NCBI RefSeq assembly: GCF_022809125.1
Contig: NZ_JALGBI010000001.1
Location: forward strand, 2,542,001-2,606,000
Direction of reading: 5' to 3'
DNA: 64,000 nucleotides
From: Variovorax terrae
GTDB lineage: Bacteria; Pseudomonadota; Gammaproteobacteria; Burkholderiales; Burkholderiaceae_C
Shown: positions 41,490 to 64,000 of the stretch, in pieces
Layout: each line of letters begins with the position of its first letter
Numbering within the stretch: the first letter of the stretch is position 1
Made by a program: the position numbers and the translations under genes
Notes under the pieces: generated by a model
What the model saw: only the letters and a program-made list of their open reading frames with translations
What the model was told of the DNA's origin: nothing
Databases searched by the model: none

Positions 41490-43280
41490 TCATGGGCTCG
41501 CCAGGTCTGCCAGGGTGAAGGCCTTGGTTTGCGCCTTGCCTTGCAGCTTTTGCCCGAACAGCTTGTTGCCGTGGATTTCCGTGATGTCCTCGCTGACCGG
41601 CAGCGCGCAACCCACCTCGGGCGAATACAGCCTGATTTCCTCGGCCTTCAGGTAGCCGCCCGCCGTCTCGAAGTCGCGCACGATCCTGAGCTGGGTGCCG
41701 GGGTAGGGAAAGTTGTATTCAGGCCAGCTCGCCCGCGTCTCGCCCACGGACACCCGGGTTTCGCCGGGCAGGCCGCGGCTCTGGATCGTCGCCACCATGC
41801 TTTGCCCCGGCGACAGCGTGGCGATGCTGCCGTTGAAGACCTGCTCGGTTTCCACGACCCGCGCATGCAGGAAATGCAGCGCCTTGGTGCCCCCTGCCGC
41901 GAGCGTGCCCGCCGCATGGTAGAACACCGTGAGCCCGTTGCCGTACTCGACGACGCAGAGGCCGTTCTCATGGCGCACCGTCATGTTGAGATCCTTGCCG
42001 CCGACCGCCATCACGACCTTGGCCGTCCGGGTGGGATGGGCCTGGGGAAACAACGCGCGCGAGCGGGCGATTTCCCCGCGCACCTTGTCCGAAATGAACA
42101 TGTCGGGGTCCACGCTGGCCACCTTGGCGGCGGATGCGCGTGCGGCGCGGTCGGCCTCGTCCAGCTCTTTCTTCTTGCGCGCGTCGGTTTCCTCGATCGC
42201 GATGATGCGGGTGCGCGCGGTCTGCACGAACTGGCCTTGCGGGTACTGCGCCAGGTAGGCCTGCAGTTCGGCGCGAGTGCCGCCCGCCTCCGCCGCGCGC
42301 CAGAAAGCCGCTTCGGCGTCGCGCGCCGCGGCTTCGCTGGAGGAATCGCCCTTCAGGCTCGCCAAGCGCACACGGCTTTGCGCCATGTAGCGCCCACGCG
42401 GGTACTTGGCGAGGTAGTCCTCGAACACGGCGGGGCTGCGGCTGGCCTTGATGCTGTCCCACAGCTGGTCTTCGATCTCGCCGGCCGATGGGGCGGCCAA
42501 GGCCATCAGCGTGCCGGCCGCGCAGTTGCCAAAGCAGAAGTCTCCTTCGATGCTGCCTTCCATCCACGGCTCCTGGCGCCCCGCCGATTCGTTCTTCACC
42601 CCGGTCACCACCCGCTTGAGCACCTGCTCCACCGGCTGGTTCGACTGTTCCATCTGCTTGAGCAGGTGCCCCGTGTACAGCCCGTTCTTGCCGCTGCCGT
42701 CGGCCGCCACGCTGCCGGGCCGCGTGGCGTAGGAGATCAGGGTGCCACTGGGCGCGCTGACTCGGGCCAGGCCTTCGCCTGTCGATCTGAAGCCCCGCGC
42801 ATACGGGTTGTTGCGGCAGGCGTCCAGGAACACGAGGTTCAGCCTCGTCTTGGCGTCTTCCAGCACGTCCATCACCTGTTTCATGGACAGGCTCTGACTG
42901 GGCACGTCTTCTTCGGAGTCGATTTCCGCGTCCACCGTGGGCAGGTAGTTCTCGCCTCGAATCTGCACGCCATGGCCCGCATAGAACACCAGCGCCACCG
43001 CGCCCGGTGTGAGTTTGCTGCGGAACTCGCGCAGCGTGGCGCCCATCTGCCGCGTGCGCAGGTTGCTGCGCTCGATCACCTCGAAGCCCAGCGCTCTGAG
43101 CCTCGCCGCCATGTCTTTCGCATCGTTCGTCGGGTTCTTCAGCGGCGAGTTCTTGTACGTGCTGTTGCCGATCACCAGCGCCACGCGCTTCTCGGCGTCG
43201 GCGGCATGGGCGGCTGCGCCGAGCAGGCAGGCCATCAGAAAGGCCAGGGCCCGGCGGATCAAAGGGTGTTGGGTTTGCAT
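41490..43280 (-). CDS. Exported caspase-family protein with YPxG repeats, downstream copy
   Basis: A 596-residue protein with a signal peptide (about 1-27, ACLLGAAAHA), then a caspase-like peptidase domain (about 30-250). The catalytic His is in FYAGHGVQIRGENYLP and the Cys in LNLVFLDACRNNPYAR. Two repeats with the YLAKYPRGRY or YLAQYPQGQF pattern follow (about 290-370), then a charged stretch (KKKELDEADRAARASAAKVA) and a beta-rich C-terminal domain of unknown type (about 410-596). It is a paralogue of the next upstream gene with which its first 240 residues are nearly identical. The target of cleavage is unknown. Confidence 0.83.
   Translation of the reverse strand: MQTQHPLIRRALAFLMACLLGAAAHAADAEKRVALVIGNSTYKNSPLKNPTNDAKDMAARLRALGFEVIERSNLRTRQMGATLREFRSKLTPGAVALVFYAGHGVQIRGENYLPTVDAEIDSEEDVPSQSLSMKQVMDVLEDAKTRLNLVFLDACRNNPYARGFRSTGEGLARVSAPSGTLISYATRPGSVAADGSGKNGLYTGHLLKQMEQSNQPVEQVLKRVVTGVKNESAGRQEPWMEGSIEGDFCFGNCAAGTLMALAAPSAGEIEDQLWDSIKASRSPAVFEDYLAKYPRGRYMAQSRVRLASLKGDSSSEAAARDAEAAFWRAAEAGGTRAELQAYLAQYPQGQFVQTARTRIIAIEETDARKKKELDEADRAARASAAKVASVDPDMFISDKVRGEIARSRALFPQAHPTRTAKVVMAVGGKDLNMTVRHENGLCVVEYGNGLTVFYHAAGTLAAGGTKALHFLHARVVETEQVFNGSIATLSPGQSMVATIQSRGLPGETRVSVGETRASWPEYNFPYPGTQLRIVRDFETAGGYLKAEEIRLYSPEVGCALPVSEDITEIHGNKLFGQKLQGKAQTKAFTLADLASP
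42521..43195. repeat. Long direct repeat, copy 1 (caspase domain)
   Basis: The caspase-domain coding DNA of the downstream gene matches 44521-45198 at about nine bases in ten; a 180-base stretch at 42961-43140 differs from its partner at about 12 positions. One codon of length difference exists. It marks a gene duplication or gene conversion. Confidence 0.85.
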
Positions 43281-43309: not shown

Positions 43310-45307
43310 CTACTTCGACGCCGCAAGCACGTGCCGGTCGATGATGTAGTTGGTTCGCACGATCTCCTTGCCATAAGGCATGTCCCAGAAGTACTGGCCG
43401 CCGGGAGGCGACATGAGCAGCGGCTTCTCGGGCACGGTGCGCACCGCCACCTGCGACAGGAAAACACCCAGGTCTTCCAGGAAATAGTCTTCGGTGACGG
43501 TGTACTTGCCTTCGTTGCGCGGCACGTCGCCCTCGGCCGGCTTCACCTGCCAGGCGTCGCCCGTCAGTTCCGGCGACAGGCTGGACGCCGCCACCTTGCC
43601 CACGACCTGTTTGGACAGCTTCAGGACGGCCCCGTTGTTGTACTTGCCTTCCACGCGGATGCGCGCGCCTTCCCTCATCGGGAACAGGCTGCCCTCGATG
43701 CGGTCGATGCTCGCGATGTAGCTCGCCACGGTGCTGCCCTGCAGGCGGCCGATCTGCAGCAGCCCGCCAAAGGCCCAATAGGCATATTCCTGGACCGACT
43801 GCACGCTGCCCGTCGAGCCCATGAGGCCATTGAACTTTTGCTGGCTGCTGGTGTTGGAGCGCACCTCCAGCCAGCCTGGCGCCGGCTGGCGCAGGCGCCG
43901 CACTTCCTTGGCCCAGCTCTCGACCTTGCCTTCCTGCGAGTTGGTGCGCAAGTCCACCTGCACTTCCATCGCCCGGGGCTCGGGGGTTCTCTGGAACGCC
44001 TCCGAAGCCTCGAGCCTGTTCCAGGTGTCCTCGCTCAGTTGGAAGGGCAGATGGGGCCGCGCCTGGGCCGCAGGCAGGTCGCGCAGCTTTTGCCGGGCTG
44101 CATCGGCGTGGCTCCCGCCCGGATAGGCATTCACGTAGGCCATCAGCGCCGGCCTCGAATTGGCCTGGCTCGCCCTGGCCCAGGCCTCGTCGTCGGCCGC
44201 CGCGTTGCGCGTCAGCGCGATGCGGCTCGCCGCCAGCGCCGCAAACCGGCCCGACGGATAGCTCGACAGGTACGCCTCGTAGTCCGCCACGCTGCGCGAC
44301 TTGTCCGCCCGGCTCCATGCCGCCATCTGCTGGCTGTCGTCGGCCACCGGCGCCTTCGCCAGGCTTGCCGCCTGCGCGGCGTACTTGCCCCTGGGGTACT
44401 GGCGCAGGTATTCGTCAAACGCCGCCTTGCTGCCGCTGCCGCGGATCGACTCCCACAGGTCGTCCTCGATCTCCCCCGCCGTGCGGATGCGCGCCGGGCT
44501 GGCCGCTGTGCCGCCCGCGGCGCAGTTGCCAAAGCAGAAGTCGCCCTCGATGCTGCCCTCCATCCACGGTTCCTGGCGGCCCTGTGATGCTGCCTTCACC
44601 CCTGACACCACTCGCTTGAGCACCTGTTCCACCGGCTGATTCGACTGCTCCATCTGCTTGAGCAAGTACCCCGTGTACAGGCCATTGCGGCCCTCCCCGT
44701 CGGCCGCCACGCTGCCGGGGCGGGTGGCATAAGAGATCAGCGTGCCGCTGGGCGCGCTGACTCGCGCCAGTCCCTCTCCCGCCGCCGAACGGAAGCTCCG
44801 TGCATAGGGGTTGTTGCGGCACGCGTCCAGGAACACGAGGTTGAGCCGGGTCTTGGCATCGTCCAGCACGTCCATGACCTGCTTCACCGAGAGGCTCTGG
44901 CTCGGAATGTCTTCCTCGGAGTCGATCTCCGCATCGACCGTGGGCAGGTAGTTCTCGCCCCGAATCTGCACGCCATGGCCCGCATAGAACACCAGCGCCA
45001 CCGCACCCGGTGTGAGTTTGCTGCGGAACTCGCGCAGCGCAGCGCCCATCTGCCGCGTGCGCAGGTTGCTGCGCTCGATCACTTCGAAGCCCAGGCTGCG
45101 CAGCTTCGCCGCCATGTCCTTCGCATCGTTCGTCGGGTTCTTCAGCGGCGAGTTCTTGTACGTGCTGTTGCCGATCACCAGCGCCACGCGCTTCTCGGAA
45201 GGCTCAGGACTCTTCGCCAACCCCTGGCCCATTGCATGCGGCGCCACAAAGACCAGGAGCAGCCCCAACCCCAGCCCGCGCCACATGACAGCCAAAAAAG
45301 TGCGCAT
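43310..45307 (-). CDS. Exported caspase-family protein with YPxG repeats, upstream copy
   Basis: A 665-residue exported protein. From the ATG at 45307 it has a signal peptide (MRTFLAVMWRGLGLGLLLVF, cleaved after HAMG), then a caspase domain with YAGHGVQIRGENYLP and FLDACRNNPYARSFRS as catalytic His and Cys. Three YL..YPxGxY-type repeats follow (FDEYLRQYPRGKY, YEAYLSSYPSGRF, LMAYVNAYPGGSH), and then a C-terminal domain of about 270 residues that differs from that of its neighbour (VQEYAYWAFGGLLQIGRLQG). Start choice is uncertain; an upstream ATG exists at 45346. The gene ends 29 bases before the second copy's start. Confidence 0.8.
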   Translation of the reverse strand: MRTFLAVMWRGLGLGLLLVFVAPHAMGQGLAKSPEPSEKRVALVIGNSTYKNSPLKNPTNDAKDMAAKLRSLGFEVIERSNLRTRQMGAALREFRSKLTPGAVALVFYAGHGVQIRGENYLPTVDAEIDSEEDIPSQSLSVKQVMDVLDDAKTRLNLVFLDACRNNPYARSFRSAAGEGLARVSAPSGTLISYATRPGSVAADGEGRNGLYTGYLLKQMEQSNQPVEQVLKRVVSGVKAASQGRQEPWMEGSIEGDFCFGNCAAGGTAASPARIRTAGEIEDDLWESIRGSGSKAAFDEYLRQYPRGKYAAQAASLAKAPVADDSQQMAAWSRADKSRSVADYEAYLSSYPSGRFAALAASRIALTRNAAADDEAWARASQANSRPALMAYVNAYPGGSHADAARQKLRDLPAAQARPHLPFQLSEDTWNRLEASEAFQRTPEPRAMEVQVDLRTNSQEGKVESWAKEVRRLRQPAPGWLEVRSNTSSQQKFNGLMGSTGSVQSVQEYAYWAFGGLLQIGRLQGSTVASYIASIDRIEGSLFPMREGARIRVEGKYNNGAVLKLSKQVVGKVAASSLSPELTGDAWQVKPAEGDVPRNEGKYTVTEDYFLEDLGVFLSQVAVRTVPEKPLLMSPPGGQYFWDMPYGKEIVRTNYIIDRHVLAASK
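44521..45198. repeat. Long direct repeat, copy 2 (caspase domain)
   Basis: Partner of 42521-43195. The shift between copies is 2000 bases at one end and 2003 at the other, so one in-frame codon was gained or lost. Outside the repeat, the two genes diverge. Confidence 0.85.
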
Positions 45308-45558
45308 CGGCGCAAGCTCGAACAAGGACGCGGTGACAGATCTCATGAAACTCAAGGATGGAGGTCGCCCGGACGATGGGCCCGCAGGCCTGCCACCCGG
45401 TGGGGAAATTGCGCCACCCCGCCCGCGGTGCGCCATGGGGTTCCGCCCGGGCGGATGGCCCTGCCGATCATCGGCGCCTTCGGCCAGCCGCCTATCCCAT
45501 ATTCATGGGTGTCGGATGAATACAACAAGCGAACAGGAAGCGATCGAGGGCCCTGCCG

Positions 45559-54788: not shown

Positions 54789-56078
54789 ATGGCTTCTCCG
54801 CTCTCCATCACCCCGCCCATGGCGCCGGGGCGCGCCCGCGACATCGCCGCCAGCCTGGACCTGCGCGCCCTGCCCCCCGACTTCTACGCCAACCCCTACC
54901 CCGTCTACGCGCTGCTGCGCGACACCGAGCCGGTGCGGCGCATGCCCGACGGCTCGTACTTCCTCACCCGCCATGCCGACCTGGTGGCGGTGTACCGCGA
55001 CGCGCAGGCGTTCAGCTCGGACAAGAAGGTGGAGTTCGAGCCCAAGTACGGCGGCGCCTCGCCCTTGTTCGCGCACCACACCACCAGCCTGGTGTTCAAC
55101 GACCCGCCGCTGCACACCCGCGTGCGCAAGCTCATCATGGGCGCGCTCACGCGCCGCGCCATCGCCGACCTGGAGCCGGGCCTGGTGAGCCTGGTGGACA
55201 GCCTGCTCGACGCCATCGAGGCCCGGGGCGGCGGCGACCTGATCGAGGACTTTGCCTCGGCGATCCCGGTGGAGATCATCGGCAACCTGCTGGGCGTGCC
55301 GCATGCCGACCGCGCGCCGCTGCGCGGCTGGTCGCTCGCCATCCTCGGCGCGCTGGAACCGCGGCTCACGCCCGAGCAGGAGGCGCTGGGCAACCACAGC
55401 GTGCGCGAATTCACGGCCTATCTGCAAGGCCTGGTGGCCGAGCGCCGCCGCCGTCCCGGCGACCCGGAGCACGACGTGCTCACGCGGCTGATCCAGGGCG
55501 AAGGCCAGGGCGAGCAGCTCAGCGAGATGGAGCTGCTGCAGAACTGCGTGTTCATCCTCAATGCCGGCCACGAAACCACCACCAACCTGATCGGCAACGC
55601 CCTGGTGGCGCTGCAGGAATGGCCCGGCCAGAAAGCCGATCTGCTATCAAAACTAGAGCACTCCACGACCGCTGCACCTGGACATGAGGCCATTTTGACC
55701 CTTGCCATCGATGAATTCCTGCGTTTCGAGTCGTCCAACCAGCTCGGCAACCGCCGCGCGCTGCGCGCCTGCGAGATCGGCGGCGTGGCCCTGCCCGAAG
55801 GCGCGCTGGTGACGCTGTGCATCGGCGCGGCCAACCGCGACCCGGCCCAGTTCCCTAATCCCGACCAGTTGGATCTGGCGCGCGCCGACAACCGCCACCT
55901 GGCCTTCGGCTTCGGCATCCACCAGTGCGCGGGCCTGAGCCTGGCGCGGCTGGAGGGGCGCATTGCCATCGGCCGCTTTCTGCAGCGCTTTCCGCACTAC
56001 CGGCTCACGGCCGCGCCCACGCGCGGAGGCCGCGCACGGTTCAGGGGTTTTCTGCGCGCGCCGCTCAGCCTCGTTTGA
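54789..56078 (+). CDS. Cytochrome P450 with a translated repeat element
   Basis: A 429-residue cytosolic P450. The I-helix oxygen motif is LNAGHETTTNLIGNALVALQ (near residue 258), the ExxR is EFLR in IDEFLRFESSNQ, and the haem-cysteine motif is FGFGIHQCAG (near residue 378). The repeat copy at 55639-55700 is read in frame as LLSKLEHSTTAAPGHEAILT between the I-helix and the ExxR helix (J region), making that stretch longer than in relatives. The redox partner is not encoded nearby. The start may be leaderless. Confidence 0.92.
   Translation: MASPLSITPPMAPGRARDIAASLDLRALPPDFYANPYPVYALLRDTEPVRRMPDGSYFLTRHADLVAVYRDAQAFSSDKKVEFEPKYGGASPLFAHHTTSLVFNDPPLHTRVRKLIMGALTRRAIADLEPGLVSLVDSLLDAIEARGGGDLIEDFASAIPVEIIGNLLGVPHADRAPLRGWSLAILGALEPRLTPEQEALGNHSVREFTAYLQGLVAERRRRPGDPEHDVLTRLIQGEGQGEQLSEMELLQNCVFILNAGHETTTNLIGNALVALQEWPGQKADLLSKLEHSTTAAPGHEAILTLAIDEFLRFESSNQLGNRRALRACEIGGVALPEGALVTLCIGAANRDPAQFPNPDQLDLARADNRHLAFGFGIHQCAGLSLARLEGRIAIGRFLQRFPHYRLTAAPTRGGRARFRGFLRAPLSLV
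55639..55700 (+). repeat. Dispersed repeat, copy G, inside the P450 gene
   Basis: GATCTGCTATCAAAACTAGA, CGACCGCTGCACCTGGACAT and GAGGCCATTTTGAC follow the family order. The element is intact enough to be recognised and has no stop in the reading frame. Confidence 0.78.
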
Positions 56079-56120: not shown

Positions 56121-56546
56121 TCAGTGCGCGCCGACCGACACCATGACCTGCAACGGCCCACCCTTTTCGAACATCAGGGTCATCTCATAGCTGCGGCCCC
56201 ACTGCAGCGGCATCTTCAGGCCCTGCAGCAGCAGGTGGCGCTTGCCTTCGGTGAACTCGGTGTCGCCGCCGGGCTGGATGCTCAGGCTTTTGAGCGGCGG
56301 CTTGCTGGCCGGACCGGCATCGCGGAACTCGACCTTCTCGGCCAGGGGCGTCACCACCTTCACCAGCTTGTCGCCCTTGCTGACGGCTTCCACGGTGAAG
56401 TAGACCGGCGCCGACGTGGCGCCGGGCGCGGTGGGTTCGGCCCAGGGATGGACGAAGGTGAGGCCGGGCAGGTAGTACTCGTGGGCGTCGGCAACGGCAG
56501 CGGCGCCCAGCAGGGCCAGCGCCAGGCAGAGTCGGGGGAATTTCAT
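56121..56546 (-). CDS. PCuAC-like periplasmic protein with altered copper motif
   Basis: A 141-residue exported protein. A signal peptide (KFPRLCLALALLGAAAVADA) is followed by a cupredoxin-like fold that matches the PCu(A)C copper chaperone family (FVHPWAEPTAPGATSAPVYF, and a GKRHLLLQGLKMPLQWG strand pair). The usual ligand motif is H(M)-X10-M-X21-H-X-M; here the first His is Arg (VEFRD), the Met after it is Lys and HxM is HLL, so only one ligand is left. Other histidines (HEYY, HPW, terminal H) may substitute. It is the last gene of the operon. Confidence 0.78.
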   Translation of the reverse strand: MKFPRLCLALALLGAAAVADAHEYYLPGLTFVHPWAEPTAPGATSAPVYFTVEAVSKGDKLVKVVTPLAEKVEFRDAGPASKPPLKSLSIQPGGDTEFTEGKRHLLLQGLKMPLQWGRSYEMTLMFEKGGPLQVMVSVGAH

Positions 56547-56584
56547 GGTGGTCACTCGCAAATCAGAAAAAATCAGGAAAGGAA

Positions 56585-57217
56585 TCAGGAAGAGAAGGAA
56601 ATCGAATAGCCCCAGGCGTCCAGGCGCTGGGGAATCGCGTTGAAGGCCAGCGTCACGCGCGGCCCGCCGCGATTGACGGGCACCTCGTGCAGCAGGTAGC
56701 TGGGAAACAGCAGCAGGTCGCCAGCCGCCGGGGGTGGGCCGATCCACTTGTCGGCGTTGAACGGGCCCACCGCGGCGCCGGCATGGGTGTTGCCGAACAC
56801 GTAGTCGCGGCCGCCCAGGTTGCGCATGAAGACGGTGTTGGCCGAGGCATCGCAGTCACTCAGGTACAGCACGCCGGAGATGAAGCAGTTGGCATGGTTG
56901 TGCACGGCCTGCCGGCCGCCGGTGTGCATGGCGTTGACCCACATTTCCTTGATGCCCCACTGCTGCTTCTCGCCGAAAAGCAGGCTGCCCAGTTCGACGA
57001 TGTGCGGCCCGAGCCGCTGCGCCAGCTGCTGCAGCAGTTCGGGCTGGTCGCCGGGGCCCAGGATGCGGGTGTGCTGCAGCTCTTGCGAATGGTGGTTGGC
57101 CAGCGCGGCATCGCCCAGCAGGCCATCGCGCAGCGCCTGCACCTGCGCGGCATCGATCACCTGCTCGACCCGCATCACCGGGGTCGGGAACAGCGCAAAG
57201 ACTTGAGACTCGGCCAT
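56585..57217 (-). CDS. 2-oxoglutarate-Fe(II) oxygenase family protein (TIGR02466 type)
   Basis: A 210-residue putative dioxygenase. It starts MAESQVFALFPTPVMRVEQV, and its iron site is in AVHNHANCFISGVLYLSDCD with a C-terminal HEVPVNRGGPRVTLAFN. This group of small oxygenases is like prolyl hydroxylases and occurs widely in proteobacteria with unknown targets. A protein substrate is possible. The start is one base after the HupE stop, and the next gene follows after 38 bases, in a single operon. Confidence 0.82.
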   Translation of the reverse strand: MAESQVFALFPTPVMRVEQVIDAAQVQALRDGLLGDAALANHHSQELQHTRILGPGDQPELLQQLAQRLGPHIVELGSLLFGEKQQWGIKEMWVNAMHTGGRQAVHNHANCFISGVLYLSDCDASANTVFMRNLGGRDYVFGNTHAGAAVGPFNADKWIGPPPAAGDLLLFPSYLLHEVPVNRGGPRVTLAFNAIPQRLDAWGYSISFSS

Positions 57218-57218
57218 C

Positions 57219-58172
57219 TCAGCCCACAATGGCCACGATGCGAGTGAGCGACCAGTAGGCCGCCACCGCGCCGATCACATACAGCGCCGGCCGGCGCAGC
57301 GAAGTGAAACCCCGCAGGCGGCCAAACAGCCTGACGGCGCCCCAGGCCAGGCCCACCACCAGCAGTTGCCCGGCTTCGACGCCCAGGTTGAAGCCCAGCA
57401 GCGCCACGGTGATGTTCTGCTGCGGCAGGCCGATGTCCTTGAGCGCGCCGGCAAACCCCAGGCCATGCACCAGCCCGAACAGGAAGGCCACCAGCGCCGG
57501 CCAGCGCCGGCTCAGGGTCTCGCGGTCGCGCATGGCCTCGGCGCAGACCAGCACGATGGACAGCGCGATGCAGGCCTCGACCGGCGGCGGCCGCAGCGTG
57601 AGCCAACCCAGCGCGCTGGCCGCCAGCGTCAGGCTGTGGGCTGCGGTGAAGGCGGTGATGGTGCCCACCAGGCGGCGGTTCAGGCCCACCAGGAACAGCA
57701 GGCCGATGACGAACATCAGGTGGTCGATGCCGCTCAGGATGTGTTCCACGCCGAGCACGGTGTAGAGCCAGGCCAGCTCGAAGCCGCCGCGCTCGTCGCG
57801 GGCGCTGCCGAACAATTGCACCGTGGGCTGCGAGCCGCTCACGGTGACCACGCTCTGCTGGCCGTCGCGCCAGACGATGCGCACGATGGCCGCCGAATAG
57901 GCCTTGCCCACGCCCTCGACCGCCAGCGTGCCCGCCAGGCCCGAGGGCCCGCAGTTCAGCACGCGCGCGTCACCGCTGCAGCCCGCGGGCCAGACCGGTG
58001 TGAGCTCCTCGGCGATGGGTTTGGTCTTGGCCGGCGCCCCCCAGTTCCAGATGAACTGGCCGGGGCCGACTTCCCGCATGGTCATCTCGGCCAGGCTCAT
58101 CTCATGGGCCTGGCCGAGGCCCGCCACGCCGGCCAGCAGCACGGCCAGCAGCAGTCGAAGCAGGGACTTCAT
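57219..58172 (-). CDS. HupE/UreJ family membrane protein
   Basis: A 317-residue protein with a signal peptide (about 1-22, VAGLGQAHEM), a periplasmic domain of about 115 residues and about seven membrane helices with the HupE/UreJ motifs: LGVEHILSGIDHLMFVIGLL, TAAHSLTLAASALGW and FLFGLVHGLGFAGALKDIGL. The conserved His and Asp residues could bind a transition metal; HupE itself is a nickel permease, but this branch has a periplasmic N-terminal domain. The stop ends one base before the oxygenase start, and the start overlaps the parvulin stop (ATGA). Confidence 0.87.
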   Translation of the reverse strand: MKSLLRLLLAVLLAGVAGLGQAHEMSLAEMTMREVGPGQFIWNWGAPAKTKPIAEELTPVWPAGCSGDARVLNCGPSGLAGTLAVEGVGKAYSAAIVRIVWRDGQQSVVTVSGSQPTVQLFGSARDERGGFELAWLYTVLGVEHILSGIDHLMFVIGLLFLVGLNRRLVGTITAFTAAHSLTLAASALGWLTLRPPPVEACIALSIVLVCAEAMRDRETLSRRWPALVAFLFGLVHGLGFAGALKDIGLPQQNITVALLGFNLGVEAGQLLVVGLAWGAVRLFGRLRGFTSLRRPALYVIGAVAAYWSLTRIVAIVG

Positions 58173-58987
58173 GGCTTCTCGCCTTCGATACGCACCGCGT
58201 ATTTCTTGCCCATCTCGCGCACGGCCTTGGAGGTCATCTCGGCCATGGTGTCGTCGCGCCAATCCTGGTAGACGGCTTCCTTGATCGGGTCGAAGCTGGC
58301 GGGAATGGGCGGCTTGCTCGATTCGAGGCGGACCACCCGCAGGCCGCTGGTGCTGGGGATGGCCTGCCAGGTGCCCACGGGCGCCTTGTCCAGTGCCTCG
58401 GCGAAATCGCTGCCGTAGCTCTCCAGCAGGTTGCCGCGGGGGCGGTCCTTGAAGACGCGCAGGTCGCTCTGGACATCGGTTTTGGTGTCGGCATTGAGCG
58501 CCTTCACGAAGGACTGGAGCACTTCGGGCGTGCTCTCGCTCGTCACCACGGCTTCCAGAAAGCTGTAGCGGGCCGGCGCGTCGTAGCGGGCATGGCGCGC
58601 CTCGAACCAGTTGCGCAGGCCGGGCTCGTCGATCTTGGGCAAGGTGATGCCGGCCTGGGCCACGCTCAGGGCCTTGAAGATGACGCGCTCGCGGATGGTC
58701 GCGTCGCCCCGGTCCAGGCCCAGCGCCAGGCCTTCGCGGTAGAGGATCTCGTTGTCGGTCCAGCGGTCCAGCAGCTTCTTCATGTCGCTGGCGCTCGGCT
58801 GGCGCTGCATGCCGGCCGCGAAGATGTCGCGGGCTTCCTTCTGGACATCGGCGCCGACGACGATGGTCTGCGGATCCGCGCGGCCGGCGTCGAGCAGGTG
58901 GTCGACGCCGAAGATCAGGGCACCGAGCAACAGGAAATGCAGCAGCGGCTCACGGGCGGCCTGCTTGAAAAGTGGGGATAGGTTCAT
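58169..58987 (-). CDS. Parvulin-type peptidyl-prolyl cis-trans isomerase, membrane-anchored
   Basis: A 272-residue protein with an N-terminal membrane anchor (LLHFLLLGALIFGVDHLL) and a periplasmic SurA-like helical segment (about 40-120: SASDMKKLLDRWTDNEILYR) followed by a parvulin-type domain (about 130-235: FVKALNADTKTDVQSDLRVF, then GTWQAIPSTSGLRVVRLES). This branch is usually encoded directly before a HupE-type gene. It probably chaperones or isomerises an exported partner from the same operon. Its stop overlaps the HupE start. Confidence 0.83.
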   Translation of the reverse strand: MNLSPLFKQAAREPLLHFLLLGALIFGVDHLLDAGRADPQTIVVGADVQKEARDIFAAGMQRQPSASDMKKLLDRWTDNEILYREGLALGLDRGDATIRERVIFKALSVAQAGITLPKIDEPGLRNWFEARHARYDAPARYSFLEAVVTSESTPEVLQSFVKALNADTKTDVQSDLRVFKDRPRGNLLESYGSDFAEALDKAPVGTWQAIPSTSGLRVVRLESSKPPIPASFDPIKEAVYQDWRDDTMAEMTSKAVREMGKKYAVRIEGEKP

Positions 58988-59044
58988 ATCGGATAGCTTG
59001 CAATAAGGATGTGAATCGCCGTTGACGGTCGGGTGTTCACGGAT

Positions 59045-61660
59045 TCAAGACGGACGCAGGCAGCGCACCTGCAACTGGTCCAGGGTGGCGCGCAGCTCGC
59101 GCACCCGTTGCGGCTCGGTGGCCACCAGCGCCCGGCCCAGGGCGATCAACGGGTCGCAGGCAGGCCGGAACTCAGGGCTCTGGCGCAGCAGGTCCAGCAG
59201 CGTGGCCTCAACGCGCCCCAGCATGACCGCCGGATCGGGGTCGGGCCGCACGGTGGTGCCGAACTGCAGGTACTGGCGGCGCACCTGCCAGTAGGCCTGC
59301 AGGCGCAGGCCATCCGGCCCCTGCGGCTGGCGCAGCAGTTCGGCGGCATCGGGCACCAGCCCGTCGATCAAGGCCATCAGGCGCTCGCGCGGCCGCGACT
59401 CGGGGGCGTAGGTGGCCCAGGGTGCGCGGTGGTTCACCACCGGACGGTCGTCGGTGTTGGCAGGCGCATCGCTGGCAAACCGCCGCAGGGCGGCCGCACC
59501 GGCAATGGCACTGCCGGCGATGGCGTAGTCGTCTTCCAGCCGGGCGGTGGCGAGCCCCTTGGCCAGCGCGGGGGTGCCGCGAACGCCGGCCAGCCGGGTC
59601 CGCAGCGCATCCACATCGATGCGCCCGTCGCCCGGCAGCGCCACCAGGCCCAGCACCGGGGTGTCCAGGCTGTTGCTGGTCAGCACCGCAATGGCGTTGG
59701 GAAACACCTGCTGGAAAGCCGCAACGATGCTGCGCAGCGTCTGCAGGTCCATCTGGTGGATGGCCAGCCACTGGCAGAACAGACCGCCCGGCGCCAGCCG
59801 CGCGCGCACCGCCGCGAACTGCTCCACCGTGTAGAGCGAACCCGCGCCGCTGCGGGCCGGGTGGAACAGGTCGGCCACCACCACGTCGTACGCCGGGCCG
59901 CTGGCCTGCACATAGCGCCGCGCATCGGCCGCGGCCACATGCACCGGGCGCGCCGCACGCGGTGCCTGCGGCGCCTGCGCGAACAGGGCCGTGGCAGCCA
60001 CCACCTCGGGCAGCAGCTCGACCGCATCGACCTGCAACTCGGCCTGCTGGGCCGCCGCCGCCGCGGTGAAGCCCGTGCCCAGGCCCAGCAGCAGCGCGCG
60101 CCGCGGCGCCGGGTGCAGCAGCAGCGGCAACTGGGCCAGGCGCCACTCGACCAGCCCGCTGGCGCTGCTGCCCTCCTGCACACGGTTGTTGATGCGCAGG
60201 CGTGAAACGCCGTCCTCGTCCTCGACCACGCTGACCGCCGCCATCACGCCATCGCGGTAGCTGCGCAGCCGGCCGCCTTCGGGGATCTCGATGAAGCGCA
60301 GGGGCGGCAGCGCCAGCACCAGCAGCGCCGCCGCAACGGCCAGCGCCACGGCTTGCGGACGGCGCCAGCCTGCAGGCCACTGCAGCAGCAGATAAGCCAG
60401 CACCAGCAACGCGATGACCGCATGGGCGCCCACCGCCGGCAGCAGCCAGACCCCGATCAGCGCCGGGGCCAGCGCGGCGCCCGCGGTGTTGACGGCCAGG
60501 GCCCGGCCCAGCGGCCAGCCCTGGTGCTGCGCCTGCAGGCAGAGGTGGGTGAACAGCGCCCCCATCACCACGGTGGGCGCCAGCATGGCGGCCGCGGCGG
60601 CCAGGGCCTCGCCCGCCAGGGCGGACGCCGCACCCGGCCCCAGCCAGGCCGCGGGCCAGGCACACAGGACATCGGCCCAGCGCAGGCCGGCGCCCGACAG
60701 CAGCACCGCCAGCGCCAGCCAGCGCAGCAGCCGGTCGCGCAGTTGTTCTGCATCGCCCAGGCGCGGCAGATAGCGCTGGTACAGGGCCGCGCCCGCCGCG
60801 GTGCCCAGCAGGTACAGGGCCAGCAGCAAGGCGTAGCTGTAGACGGTGTTCTCGGTGACCTGGCTCAGCACGCGCACCGCCAGCACCTCGTAGCCGATGC
60901 CCAGCAGGCCGGTGGCCAGCAGCAGGCCCGGCAGGCGCCAGCCAGCCGATGACTCCGCGGCCGGCGCGGCGGGCATGACCGTGCTGTCGCGCCAGAGGCC
61001 CCAGGCGATCAGGGCGCAGGCCGCATTGGCCGCGGCACACAGCCAGGCCGTGTGCTGCAGGCCCCACAGCGGCAAGGCCACGAACACCACGGCCAGCAGG
61101 CCCAGCACCGCTCCCAGTGTGTTGGCGGCATACAGCGCGCCCAGGCGGCTGTGGCTGGCGCGCAGCTGGCTTTCCAGCGCCGGCAGCGTGGCGCCCATGG
61201 CAGCGCTGGCAGGCAGCAACAGCACCAGAGGCAGGGCAAAGGCAACCGTCCAGTGCCAGCCGATGGAAGGCTCGGCACCGATCAGCCGCGCACCGGCCTC
61301 GACCAGCACGGGCATCAGAAAACTCAGGGCCAGGCCCCACAGCACCAGCACCGCCTCGCAGGCGGCGTACCAGCGGCCGGGCCGGCGGCTGGCGGCGATG
61401 GTGCGCCCCAGGCCCCAGGCGCCCAGCGCCAGCCCGCCGAAGAAGGCGGCCAGCACGGCCAGCACGGCGACGATCTCGTGGCCCAGGCCGGCGCCGAACT
61501 GCGCGGTCCAGACCACCTGCCAGCCCAGGCCCGCGGCACCGGACAGCAGCATGACGAACAAGGCCGGCACGAGGCCGGCTTGGATCTGCCCCGCCGGCCC
61601 CAGGGCCGGCGGGTTGAGAACACCGGAGGCGCCTGCCCCCGGTGCGGATGCACGCAGCAT
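59045..61660 (-). CDS. Membrane-bound spermidine-synthase-like protein (fused)
   Basis: An 871-residue protein. The first 480 residues form about 12-14 membrane helices (LFVMLLSGAAGLGWQVVWTA, then GFGLGRTIAAS-like loops). Residues about 500-720 are a Rossmann methyltransferase/aminopropyltransferase domain with the cofactor motif LLLGLGTGFTAAAAA and VDAVELLPEVVAATALFA, and VVVADLFHPARSG near residue 600. The final 150 residues are helical. Polyamine synthesis is not certain, since such fused proteins often lack the putrescine-binding residues. It starts three bases after the DUF3604 stop. Confidence 0.85.
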   Translation of the reverse strand: MLRASAPGAGASGVLNPPALGPAGQIQAGLVPALFVMLLSGAAGLGWQVVWTAQFGAGLGHEIVAVLAVLAAFFGGLALGAWGLGRTIAASRRPGRWYAACEAVLVLWGLALSFLMPVLVEAGARLIGAEPSIGWHWTVAFALPLVLLLPASAAMGATLPALESQLRASHSRLGALYAANTLGAVLGLLAVVFVALPLWGLQHTAWLCAAANAACALIAWGLWRDSTVMPAAPAAESSAGWRLPGLLLATGLLGIGYEVLAVRVLSQVTENTVYSYALLLALYLLGTAAGAALYQRYLPRLGDAEQLRDRLLRWLALAVLLSGAGLRWADVLCAWPAAWLGPGAASALAGEALAAAAAMLAPTVVMGALFTHLCLQAQHQGWPLGRALAVNTAGAALAPALIGVWLLPAVGAHAVIALLVLAYLLLQWPAGWRRPQAVALAVAAALLVLALPPLRFIEIPEGGRLRSYRDGVMAAVSVVEDEDGVSRLRINNRVQEGSSASGLVEWRLAQLPLLLHPAPRRALLLGLGTGFTAAAAAQQAELQVDAVELLPEVVAATALFAQAPQAPRAARPVHVAAADARRYVQASGPAYDVVVADLFHPARSGAGSLYTVEQFAAVRARLAPGGLFCQWLAIHQMDLQTLRSIVAAFQQVFPNAIAVLTSNSLDTPVLGLVALPGDGRIDVDALRTRLAGVRGTPALAKGLATARLEDDYAIAGSAIAGAAALRRFASDAPANTDDRPVVNHRAPWATYAPESRPRERLMALIDGLVPDAAELLRQPQGPDGLRLQAYWQVRRQYLQFGTTVRPDPDPAVMLGRVEATLLDLLRQSPEFRPACDPLIALGRALVATEPQRVRELRATLDQLQVRCLRPS

Positions 61661-61663
61661 TGA

Positions 61664-63748
61664 TTACTTGACGCCGGCGACCTTGACCGAGTTCAGCACT
61701 TCGATGTAGACCGGGTTGCTGTAGAACCACAGGTCAGACCAGCCAGCCACGTCGTAGCTGGAGTACTTCACGCCATTCAGGGTGCGCAGGTGCGCCGGGC
61801 AGGCTGCGTCGCTGCAAGGGATCTTGCCGGGCTGGCTGCTGTCGGCCGGGTTCGCCAGGAAGTCCAGCAGCGGGTTGCCGTCGGCATCGGTCTCGTTCGG
61901 CACCGAGGCCGGCAGGTTGGTGCCGCGCAGGCGGAAGTACTGCGATGCGGTGGCGGCCGGCACGATGTAGCTCATGCTGATGGTGCCGTCGGCAGCCTTC
62001 GTCCAGTTCTTGCTGTTGAACACCTTGGCGATCTTGGCCGAGCTGTTGGTGGCGGCGGTCGAGTTCAGCAGGCCGGCGTAGCGGGCGCCGTCCGACGGGT
62101 CGACATAGCCGCTCACGCGGCCGTTGATCACGTCCACGTGGTCCAGTACCGGCTGGTTCAGCGGCTGGGTGATGCTGACCTGCTTGAGCGACGGGTTCGG
62201 GAACGAATACGGCGAGTTGTTGGTGCCGGGGGGATCGCGCAGCACCACCGTCACGACCAGGTCGGTGCCGGGGCGGACCACCAGCTTTTCGCCCATGGTG
62301 GCGCAGCCGTCGATGCGCACGTCGCCGTTGGCGGCGGCCGCGTTGGCGCCGGCCTTTTCCAGCAGCGCCTTGCCGGCATTGCGCGGCAGGCCCGGGTGGG
62401 CGGCGCAGACGGTGAACGACAGGCGGTCGATCAGCTGGCCGTTGGCGACGAAGCTGTTGCCGCTGCGCAGGCCGTCGATGATGCCGCCGGCGGTCAGGTC
62501 GCCCTTGCCCTTGCGCACCATCACGAAGTCGCGAGTGTATTCGCCGGGGTAGAAGTCGGCGGTGGATTCGCGCTGGTCGGGGCCGAAGCTGCCGCGGTTG
62601 TGGTAGTCGGAGCTGGCGAAGAACCACCAGTTGCGGCCTTCACCCAGCAGGGCATCCCAGACGCCGCCGACCTGTGCGGCATAGACGCCCGTGCCGCCAT
62701 AGGTGCCGCCGCCGACGGCGCCGGTGCCGTAGCTGCCGCGGCCTGCCTCAGCCTGGTGGCCGGGCATGGATTCGAAGCCGAAGGCGATGCGCGGAGCGGC
62801 GTTGTTGAAGTTGCGCAGGTGCTCGATGTTGAAGCCGCTGTTGCTGGTCGGGTTGTAGGCGCCTGCGCGCTCCAGGTGGGCCGGCACGAAGTAGCTGGTC
62901 GAGGGCGCCTTTTCGTTCATCCACTTGATGCCTTCCAGGGTCTTGAGGTGCCCCAGGTTGGCGGTGGCGGAAGCGTTGGTGCCCAGGATCTTGCGGGCGG
63001 TGGCGTCCATCAGCGCGTTGTTGCTGCTGCCGCTGACCGAGCAGTCCCAGTTGTTGTTGGCGCCGCGGCTGGTGTCGGTGTCGCTGCGGTCGAAGCAGTA
63101 TTCGTACTGCGCCTGCAGGTTGGCATTGCCGCTGTTGCCCGTCGCCGGGAAGGGCAGCTGGCCGTTCAGCACCGTGGTCGAGATGTGCTCGTGGCCCGGG
63201 GCGTTCTGCTCGACGCCGATCCAGATCGGCTTCTTGCGGTTGCGGCTCTCGGCTTCGGTGATCGGGTACTGGAACTCCGAGATTTCCTGCCAGCGCCACA
63301 TCGCCTTGGTGGTGGCGGTGCCGTCGCCCTTGATGGCGTCACGGCCGATGGTGGCCTGCCAGGTCTGGTTGGGCCCCTTGCCGGCGCTGGCCGGCTGGCC
63401 GCCGCTGGGAATGGTGTCGCCACTGGGAATGCCCAGCGCCGGAGCGACCGGCTCGAACGGGTCTTCCGCCAGCGTGCAGTTGCGGGTGCTGCTGCCGCCG
63501 TGGTCGGCCTGCACGAACCAGTCGAGGTTGAAAGTGCCGGCCGACTTGTCGATCAGCTTCTTCATCGACAGCGTGCCGTCGGAGCAGGTGGTGTGGTTGT
63601 GGAAGTCGCCGGTGACGTAGGTGCCCGATGCCTTGGTGTTGGCACGGTCGGCGGCCTGGGCGGTTTGCGGCGCGATGGCCGGCAGTGCGGCGGCCAGGGC
63701 GGCCAGGGCCAGGGCGGTCTCGCGCATCTTGAAGGAAGTGTGCTTCAT
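61664..63748 (-). CDS. DUF3604 family protein, exported
   Basis: A 694-residue periplasmic protein. The signal peptide is about 1-32 (ALAALAAALPAIAPQTAQA). The start of the mature part has GDFHNHTTCSDGTLSMKKLI, with the PHP-like HxH and downstream D, then VQADHGGSST, and SSDYHNRGSFGPDQR near residue 390, a likely metal site. Together these resemble the PHP metallophosphoesterase fold. DUF3604 has no assigned reaction. The 694-residue length is normal for the family. It is co-directional and nearly abutting with the spermidine-synthase-like gene. Confidence 0.85.
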   Translation of the reverse strand: MKHTSFKMRETALALAALAAALPAIAPQTAQAADRANTKASGTYVTGDFHNHTTCSDGTLSMKKLIDKSAGTFNLDWFVQADHGGSSTRNCTLAEDPFEPVAPALGIPSGDTIPSGGQPASAGKGPNQTWQATIGRDAIKGDGTATTKAMWRWQEISEFQYPITEAESRNRKKPIWIGVEQNAPGHEHISTTVLNGQLPFPATGNSGNANLQAQYEYCFDRSDTDTSRGANNNWDCSVSGSSNNALMDATARKILGTNASATANLGHLKTLEGIKWMNEKAPSTSYFVPAHLERAGAYNPTSNSGFNIEHLRNFNNAAPRIAFGFESMPGHQAEAGRGSYGTGAVGGGTYGGTGVYAAQVGGVWDALLGEGRNWWFFASSDYHNRGSFGPDQRESTADFYPGEYTRDFVMVRKGKGDLTAGGIIDGLRSGNSFVANGQLIDRLSFTVCAAHPGLPRNAGKALLEKAGANAAAANGDVRIDGCATMGEKLVVRPGTDLVVTVVLRDPPGTNNSPYSFPNPSLKQVSITQPLNQPVLDHVDVINGRVSGYVDPSDGARYAGLLNSTAATNSSAKIAKVFNSKNWTKAADGTISMSYIVPAATASQYFRLRGTNLPASVPNETDADGNPLLDFLANPADSSQPGKIPCSDAACPAHLRTLNGVKYSSYDVAGWSDLWFYSNPVYIEVLNSVKVAGVK

Positions 63749-63798
63749 GGAAAAAGTCCTGTGGTCGGTCAGAAATAAAGAGGGATGGCCGGCGTGGC

Positions 63799-64000
63799 TC
63801 AGACGGTGGGCGCCTGGGCCTGGTCGCCGTACAGGCGCACCTTGCTGTCCTGCAGCCTGACACGGGTGGTGAAGGTGGTGGCGGTGCTGTCAGCGTCGGC
63901 GTTGGTGACCGTGGCGGTCAGCGTGCAGAAGCCCTTGGCGTCGCAGTCGGTGATGGTGGCGTTCGACAGCGTCACGCCGGGAAACACCAGGTCCGGCGTG
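63799..64000 (-). CDS. Unknown protein, 3' end only
   Basis: The last 66 codons of a minus-strand frame that enters from beyond the window edge. The visible part, with LSNATITDCDAKGFCTLTAT and VRLQDSKVRLYGDQAQAPTV, is rich in Thr, Ser, Ala and Val and looks like one immunoglobulin-like or cadherin-like beta repeat of an exported protein. It ends 50 bases before the DUF3604 start codon, so it is probably the first known gene of the operon. The product cannot be named from this part. Confidence 0.6.
   Translation of the reverse strand, partial: TPDLVFPGVTLSNATITDCDAKGFCTLTATVTNADADSTATTFTTRVRLQDSKVRLYGDQAQAPTV

What the first reader, a model, noticed from the sequence alone, without database searches (positions are those of the whole stretch)
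56121..64000. Compact operon joining DUF3604, a spermidine-synthase-like protein, a parvulin, HupE, a 2OG-Fe(II) oxygenase and a PCuAC-like protein
Seven co-directional genes have gaps of 50, 3 and 57 bases, a 4-base overlap, and gaps of 1 and 38 bases. The products are exported or in the membrane, except the oxygenase: a PHP-like metal protein, a membrane methyl/aminopropyl-transferase-like enzyme, a folding factor, a metal-permease-like protein and a copper-chaperone-like protein. The set suggests assembly or modification of a metal-dependent exported product. I know of no described pathway with this composition.
Basis: partly seen in the sequence, partly recalled or inferred. Interest (0 to 1): 0.7.

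Follow-up and report, generated by a model that had tools for sequence, protein, structure and literature searches.

The report
Conserved exported PHP-hydrolase, chaperone, permease operon
A seven-gene bacterial operon, whose core gene set recurs in dozens of other bacteria, appears to make an exported metal-dependent enzyme together with its own folding helper and metal permease, and we found no description of such a gene set in the papers we could search.

Summary
The operon is real; coordinates and gaps are as stated. The gene set recurs in 80 named loci, mostly Burkholderiales, in several orders. Of 49 loci with long flanks, PpiC and HupE lie within 5 kb of the PHP gene in 49; the oxygenase is present in 48, the spermidine-synthase-like gene in 44. 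In 250 Burkholderiales genomes the PHP gene, its HupE (>= 475 bits) and the synthase-like gene (>= 678 bits) occur in the same 8. The 'DUF3604' protein does not match Pfam's DUF3604, but its model has a PHP fold and its predicted metal ligands are invariant. True DUF3604 genes elsewhere also have PpiC and HupE nearby (13 of 17 loci); in 199 phylum genomes every HupE above 200 bits (16 of 16) lies beside a PHP-type gene. Five further such HupE had PpiC beside them (5 of 5) and DUF3604 (4 of 5); of eight lower-scoring HupE fetched, seven had neither and one had both. Best reading: an exported metallohydrolase with a dedicated chaperone and metal-permease pair, plus accessory genes including a lipoprotein or PEP-CTERM protein. 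The copper-chaperone label fails: the ligand pattern is absent. Metal, transport direction and substrate are unknown. No paper found describes this set.

The parts
63799..64000 (-). C-terminal part of a 169-aa lipoprotein with lipobox LSAC (whole gene L004:11799-12308, beyond the window end)
   Evidence: no Pfam or NCBIfam match
61664..63748 (-). Exported PHP-fold metallohydrolase-like protein, CehA/McbA-related, 694 aa
63578..63607 (-). PHP motif I of that protein (residues 48-57, DFHNHTTCSD); D48, H50, H52 and D57 invariant in 87 of 87
62600..62608 (-). Motif D381-Y-H383 of that protein; D381 and H383 invariant in 87 of 87
59045..61660 (-). Membrane protein with spermidine-synthase-like SAM-binding domain (MFS_SpdSyn family), 871 aa
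58169..58987 (-). PpiC/parvulin-type protein (Rotamase_2) with N-terminal hydrophobic anchor, 272 aa
57219..58172 (-). HupE/UreJ_2-type permease with N-terminal, probably exported, domain, 317 aa
57813..58100 (-). N-terminal domain of HupE (residues 25-120); model resembles ZrgA/PA4063 zinc-binding proteins (tentative)
56585..57217 (-). 2OG-FeII_Oxy_5 / TIGR02466-like putative oxygenase, 210 aa; H-x-H invariant, H177 and R187 in 71 of 73
56121..56546 (-). PCuAC-fold exported protein without the recalled copper-ligand pattern, 141 aa

Best explanation
The operon makes an exported PHP-fold metallohydrolase and the proteins that put it into working order. Shown: the gene set is conserved, the model is PHP-fold, the predicted metal ligands are invariant, and PpiC plus this HupE subfamily accompany two families of exported PHP-like proteins. 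Inferred: PpiC acts as a dedicated periplasmic chaperone for the hydrolase after Sec export; HupE, a membrane permease whose N-terminal domain probably lies outside the inner membrane, handles the metal the hydrolase needs, by passing it to the apo-enzyme or by keeping the local supply. In the Burkholderiales version the synthase-like protein, the oxygenase, the PCuAC-fold protein and a surface protein (lipoprotein or PEP-CTERM) form an accessory layer that tethers or modifies the product or its ligand. The metal, the direction of transport and the hydrolase's substrate are not known.
Confidence: 0.45

Rival explanations
1. A metal-scavenging system: an organometallic complex enters through the TonB-dependent receptor, the PHP hydrolase breaks the ligand in the envelope, and HupE imports the freed metal.
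For: HupE residues of the recalled H-x3-G-x-D-H motif are invariant (H144, G148, D150, H151; 71 of 71) and certain HupE/UreJ members mediate Ni transport (PMC2667541, passages). A TonB-dependent receptor gene is divergent to the operon and a TBDR lies in 17 of 49 long-flank loci. Weak N-terminal likeness to zinc-binding ZrgA/PA4063. A PEP-CTERM zinc exoprotein, ZepA, is known (PMC10957091, abstract and passages). One locus (L063) has a urease alpha gene next to HupE.
Against: The receptor subfamily is in 46 of 250 genomes and in 6 of the 8 with the cluster; it is beside the cluster in the window's genome and on another contig in the other five. Of 20 fetched DUF3604-type loci one has a TBDR match, a weak one. 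In 38 PEP-CTERM proteins no alignment column has His in more than 7.
Confidence: 0.25
2. A nutrient-hydrolysis operon: the PHP enzyme cleaves an environmental phosphate- or sulfate-type ester, and the other genes are general helpers.
For: A sulfatase-like gene is near DUF3604 in 4 of 20 loci (two of the four confirmed as PF00884). PHP-fold relatives are mostly hydrolases (recalled).
Against: Apart from the genes named and PEP-CTERM, no gene cluster recurs in more than 9 of 86 loci, so no transporter or regulator is conserved. The partnership with one HupE subfamily is not explained.
Confidence: 0.15
3. A biosynthetic operon: the synthase-like enzyme and the oxygenase make a small exported ligand (metallophore-like) and the PHP protein trims or recycles it.
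For: The synthase-like gene is tied to the cluster (8 of 8 genomes; best match in the other 242 is 213 bits); its SAM-site-type residues E548 and D579 are invariant in 66 of 66 (assignment recalled).
Against: None of the 20 DUF3604-type loci has either enzyme. No further biosynthetic gene recurs in more than 9 of 86 loci.
Confidence: 0.1

Closest known systems
CehA/McbA family PHP metallohydrolases (NCBIfam NF038032)
   Same: 49 of 49 family members match this model at E <= 0.01; PHP fold and motif
   Different: The window's protein scores 36.5 bits, below the curated 80; it is about 700 aa with a beta-rich C-terminal part and has partner genes
DUF3604 (Pfam PF12228) with PpiC and HupE neighbours
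   Same: Same two partner families; GDxHxHT and DxH motifs in both
   Different: No significant sequence match between the two PHP-like families; no oxygenase, synthase-like, PCuAC or PEP-CTERM gene in the 20 loci
HupE/UreJ permeases (PF13795, PF04955), certain members shown to mediate Ni transport (PMC2667541, passages)
   Same: Same transmembrane family and motif
   Different: A subfamily with a conserved N-terminal domain, found beside PHP-type genes
NifM, PpiC-domain maturation factor of nitrogenase NifH (PMC12691677, abstract)
   Same: A PpiC-type protein serving the maturation of one metalloprotein
   Different: NifM serves nitrogenase; here the presumed client is exported
ZepA, PEP-CTERM zinc exoprotein (PMC10957091, abstract and passages)
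   Same: PEP-CTERM protein in a metal context
   Different: The PEP-CTERM proteins here have no conserved His (at most 7 of 38 in a column); Zur was not searched for. The two were not compared by sequence

Membership tests
Pfam DUF3604 (PF12228) | Match to the family HMM | tested here: not met
   0 of 24 members at E <= 0.1; profile search no better than shuffled sequences
PHP-fold metal-dependent hydrolases | PHP fold | tested here: met
PHP-fold metal-dependent hydrolases | Conserved metal-ligand residues | tested here: met
   H50, H52, D57, H83, E180, H291, D381, H383 in 87 of 87; their assignment as ligands is by motif, recalled
PHP-fold metal-dependent hydrolases | Hydrolase activity | not testable with these tools
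   needs enzyme assay
CehA/McbA family (NF038032) | Score above curated cut-off 80 | tested here: not met
   36.5 bits for the window's protein; 49 of 49 members match at E <= 0.01
HupE/UreJ | Match to PF13795 | tested here: met
   154.7 bits, cut-off 24.5, for the window's protein; 37 of 37 members match
HupE/UreJ | Nickel or cobalt transport | not testable with these tools
   needs uptake assay
ZrgA/PA4063-like domain (HupE residues 25-120) | Shared fold | tested here: inconclusive
PCuAC copper chaperone | Match to PF04314 | tested here: met
   67.8 bits, cut-off 29.4
PCuAC copper chaperone | H/M copper-ligand pattern (recalled: HM..M..HxM) | tested here: not met
   full pattern in 0 of 51 rows, any HxM in 7 of 51. 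Columns with H/M/C in half the rows: 22 (C 28, H 23), 33 (H 50), 50 (M 30; Phe in the window), 104 (H 35), so single remnants may exist
Aminopropyltransferase (spermidine synthase) | Both acidic residues of the recalled DxxD acceptor motif | tested here: not met
   D597 in 66 of 66; second position H in 60 and Q in 6 of 66
2OG-Fe(II) oxygenase | H-x-D/E ... H facial triad (recalled) | tested here: not met
   H-x-H in 73 of 73, H177 and R187 in 71 of 73; Pfam 2OG-FeII_Oxy_5 passes its cut-off; NCBIfam TIGR02466 does not (53.2 of 62.5 bits)
PpiC/parvulin | Match to PF13145 | tested here: met
   42.3 bits, cut-off 27
PEP-CTERM protein (relatives, not the window) | Sorting signal above cut-off | tested here: met
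   of 4 tested of 38, TIGR02595 above cut-off in 3 and TIGR03370 in 1

The most novel reading that the evidence does not exclude
A distinct HupE subfamily with a conserved N-terminal domain is not a cell-supply nickel permease but a dedicated metal-delivery partner that, with a PpiC-type chaperone, metallates exported PHP-type hydrolases of at least two families not related by detectable sequence similarity, across Proteobacteria.
Probability: 0.3. Interest if true: 0.8.

Novelty: new variant of a known kind. Interest (0 to 1): 0.6.

Why it matters
How enzymes that fold after Sec export get their metal is, to my knowledge, an open question. A membrane permease and a chaperone that travel with two families of exported PHP-like enzymes would be a testable dedicated answer, and would change how these HupE genes are annotated. 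It also gives partners to DUF3604, which only one paper in the searched library names.

Tried and rejected
Copper handling: rejected, the PCuAC-like proteins lack the full ligand pattern in 51 of 51 rows.

TonB-dependent receptor as a core part: not supported. In a sample of 24 genomes that I partly chose for having it, it lies within 10 kb in 13, but in 250 genomes drawn without that bias it is beside the cluster only in the window's genome; in the other five genomes that have both, it is on another contig, so distant but not measured.

Lipoprotein and PEP-CTERM protein as clean functional swaps: never together (0 of 49; Fisher p 3e-8), but the tree needs only 2 changes, so this is mostly two clades; six of the 49 have neither (a FastTree tree with some long branches). 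Profile comparison shows no homology. Exosortase (PF09721, 20 genomes, 17 over Pfam's cut-off): strong matches (over 200 bits) in 9 of 9 PEP-type genomes, 2 of 8 lipoprotein-type and 2 of 3 with neither; 77-90 bits, still over the cut-off of 25.7, in 3 lipoprotein-type and 1 with neither; none in the window's genome and two other lipoprotein-type genomes.

DUF and DUF3604 homology by sequence: hhalign E 0.009, probability 4%; hmmsearch no better than shuffled. Not shown.

Contexts of distant synthase-like homologues (9 loci) and distant PHP paralogues (3 loci): none of the other partner profiles matched there. Foldseek alone gave no hit at E <= 0.001 for either model; for the HupE membrane part no family stood out.
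Full report
The observation. The window lies in a 4.93-Mb genome whose PHP protein is 88% identical to one of Xylophilus rhododendri. The seventh gene, cut by the window end, encodes a 169-aa lipoprotein by its lipobox (Cys invariant in 24 of 24; C122 and C128 conserved). Divergent to it is a TonB-dependent receptor gene.

Conservation. One scan of the genome collection with an alignment of the PHP protein gave 178 relatives, of which the best 80 loci were kept: by their titles mostly Burkholderiales, with Steroidobacter, Methylococcaceae, Competibacteraceae, Hydrocarboniphaga, Azoarcus, Methyloversatilis, Methylotenera, and MAGs labelled Deltaproteobacteria, Sorangium and Phycisphaerales (MAG labels may be binning errors). 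Together with six loci, 86 were examined with tblastn and iterated profiles; two of them, L006 and L036, have identical PHP proteins. Of the 86, 49 have long flanks: PpiC 49, HupE 49, oxygenase 48, synthase-like 44, PCuAC 36, PEP-CTERM 28, TBDR 17, lipoprotein 15; 44 of 49 have PpiC, HupE, oxygenase and synthase-like together, and PpiC and HupE are never more than 4.4 kb from the PHP gene. Gene order and strand differ between groups while membership persists. Apart from the nine profiled families and PEP-CTERM, no gene cluster recurs in more than 9 loci.

Co-occurrence. In 250 genomes of the order (at least 90% complete) the PHP protein (E <= 1e-80) is in 8 (4 genera, 4 families). The synthase-like protein at >= 678 bits is in the same 8 and the best match elsewhere is 213 bits; HupE at >= 475 bits is in the same 8; the oxygenase at >= 217 bits is in the 8 and in G051, whose oxygenase has none of the other partners in the 16.8 kb fetched. 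In all 8 the matches lie together on one contig by coordinates. The genomes are related, so these are not 8 independent events.

The partners go with PHP-type proteins in general. True DUF3604 (PF12228) is in 15 of 199 genomes of the phylum (14 over the cut-off) and not in the window's. I fetched 20 kb around 20 of these matches (the two of G346 not): 17 loci hold a clear DUF3604 gene, and 13 of the 17 have both PpiC and HupE; L138, where only a DUF3604 fragment remains, also has both; L139 has HupE alone; L128, L129, L134 and L137 have neither, nor has L140, with a weak DUF3604 match. Of G346's two genes, one has both partners in its short flank and one has none. None of the 20 loci has the oxygenase, the synthase-like gene, PCuAC or PEP-CTERM. 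Searching HupE in the same 199 genomes gave 16 matches above 200 bits; by coordinates all 16 lie beside the window's PHP gene or a DUF3604 gene or fragment. The next match is 169 bits, and one partial match of 107 bits (G198) also adjoins a DUF3604 fragment. I then tested this as a prediction in the order: five HupE of 246-290 bits in genomes without the window-type cluster were fetched, and PpiC was adjacent in 5 of 5 and DUF3604 present in 4 of 5 (L186 has none in 14 kb). Of 67 rows under 200 bits I fetched eight: L188 (160 bits) has PpiC and DUF3604, and seven (one of them on a 5.2-kb contig) have neither. Whether the two PHP-like families are homologous is not shown by sequence.

The other proteins. 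In the PpiC-like protein no column of the PPIase domain has His in half of 77 rows, so a chaperone role fits better than isomerase catalysis; this is inference. The oxygenase family has H-x-H in 73 of 73; the nearest solved structures are two uncharacterized proteins. The synthase-like protein keeps SAM-site-type residues and one catalytic-type Asp but has His or Gln for the second. The PCuAC-like protein has no full ligand pattern in 51 rows, although H33 (50 rows) and H104 (35 rows) remain; its mature start by eye is His-Glu or Cys-Glu/Cys-Asp in most rows.

Lipoprotein or PEP-CTERM. No locus has both. The split follows two clades of the PHP tree with L039 as the one exception. All 9 PEP-type genomes tested have strong exosortase matches; of 8 lipoprotein-type genomes 2 have strong ones, 3 have 77-90 bits and 3, the window's among them, have none. 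The surface protein may thus be fitted to the anchoring machinery at hand; this is inference and the two strong lipoprotein-type cases speak against a strict rule.

Mechanism. I commit to an exported PHP metallohydrolase with its own chaperone and metal-permease pair (0.45). The main argument is that, in the genomes sampled, this HupE subfamily is found with PpiC and PHP-type proteins and seldom elsewhere, which a general cell-supply permease would not need. The scavenging rival (0.25) keeps the known direction of HupE transport.

Literature. DUF3604: 1 paper, by its title and abstract start unrelated. HupE with PEP-CTERM: 0 papers. Two of DUF3604, HupE, TonB-dependent: 30 papers, 20 listed. 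Two of HupE, PpiC, PHP domain, parvulin, DUF3604, CehA: 46 papers, 15 listed. Two of PEP-CTERM, spermidine synthase, 2OG-Fe, PCuAC, HupE UreJ: 10 papers, all listed. No listed title or abstract start describes the gene set; unlisted papers and subscription journals were not seen. Read in part: PMC10957091 (abstract, passages), PMC2667541 (passages), PMC12691677 (abstract), PMC12419801 (passages, irrelevant).

Every count was held against its call. Mended: the eighth lower-scoring HupE (L188, with both partners) is now in the summary; weak exosortase matches are said to pass Pfam's cut-off; the receptor is said to be on other contigs rather than unlinked; partial PCuAC remnants are told; and the statement on Zur was withdrawn, as it was not searched.

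Noticed in passing
window 41490-43250 and 43310-45436 (-): Two neighbouring caspase-domain (Peptidase_C14) proteins, similar to each other by eye, perhaps a tandem duplication.
   Followed up: partly
window 54789-56078 (+): Cytochrome P450 gene convergent with the operon, 42 bases from its end.
   Followed up: no
L004:12380-14617 (+): TonB-dependent receptor divergent to the operon; its subfamily (E <= 1e-60) is in 46 of 250 Burkholderiales genomes.
   Followed up: partly
L063:3196-4899: Urease alpha subunit gene directly beside HupE of this cluster in one MAG.
   Followed up: no
L125:5641-7161, L127:11341-12954: Sulfatase genes near true DUF3604-PpiC-HupE loci; related genes in 4 of 20 loci, two confirmed as sulfatases.
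   Followed up: partly
L183:6825-7427: A second HupE-like gene (by eye) directly after the first.
   Followed up: no
window 57219-58172 and 56121-56546: Two exported proteins of the operon appear, by eye, to begin after signal cleavage with His-Glu (Cys-Glu in many PCuAC relatives); H23-E24 of HupE is invariant in 71 of 71. Unexplained.
   Followed up: no
G314:C12:456051-456335: A DUF3604 fragment with a stop inside, beside PpiC and HupE genes.
   Followed up: no
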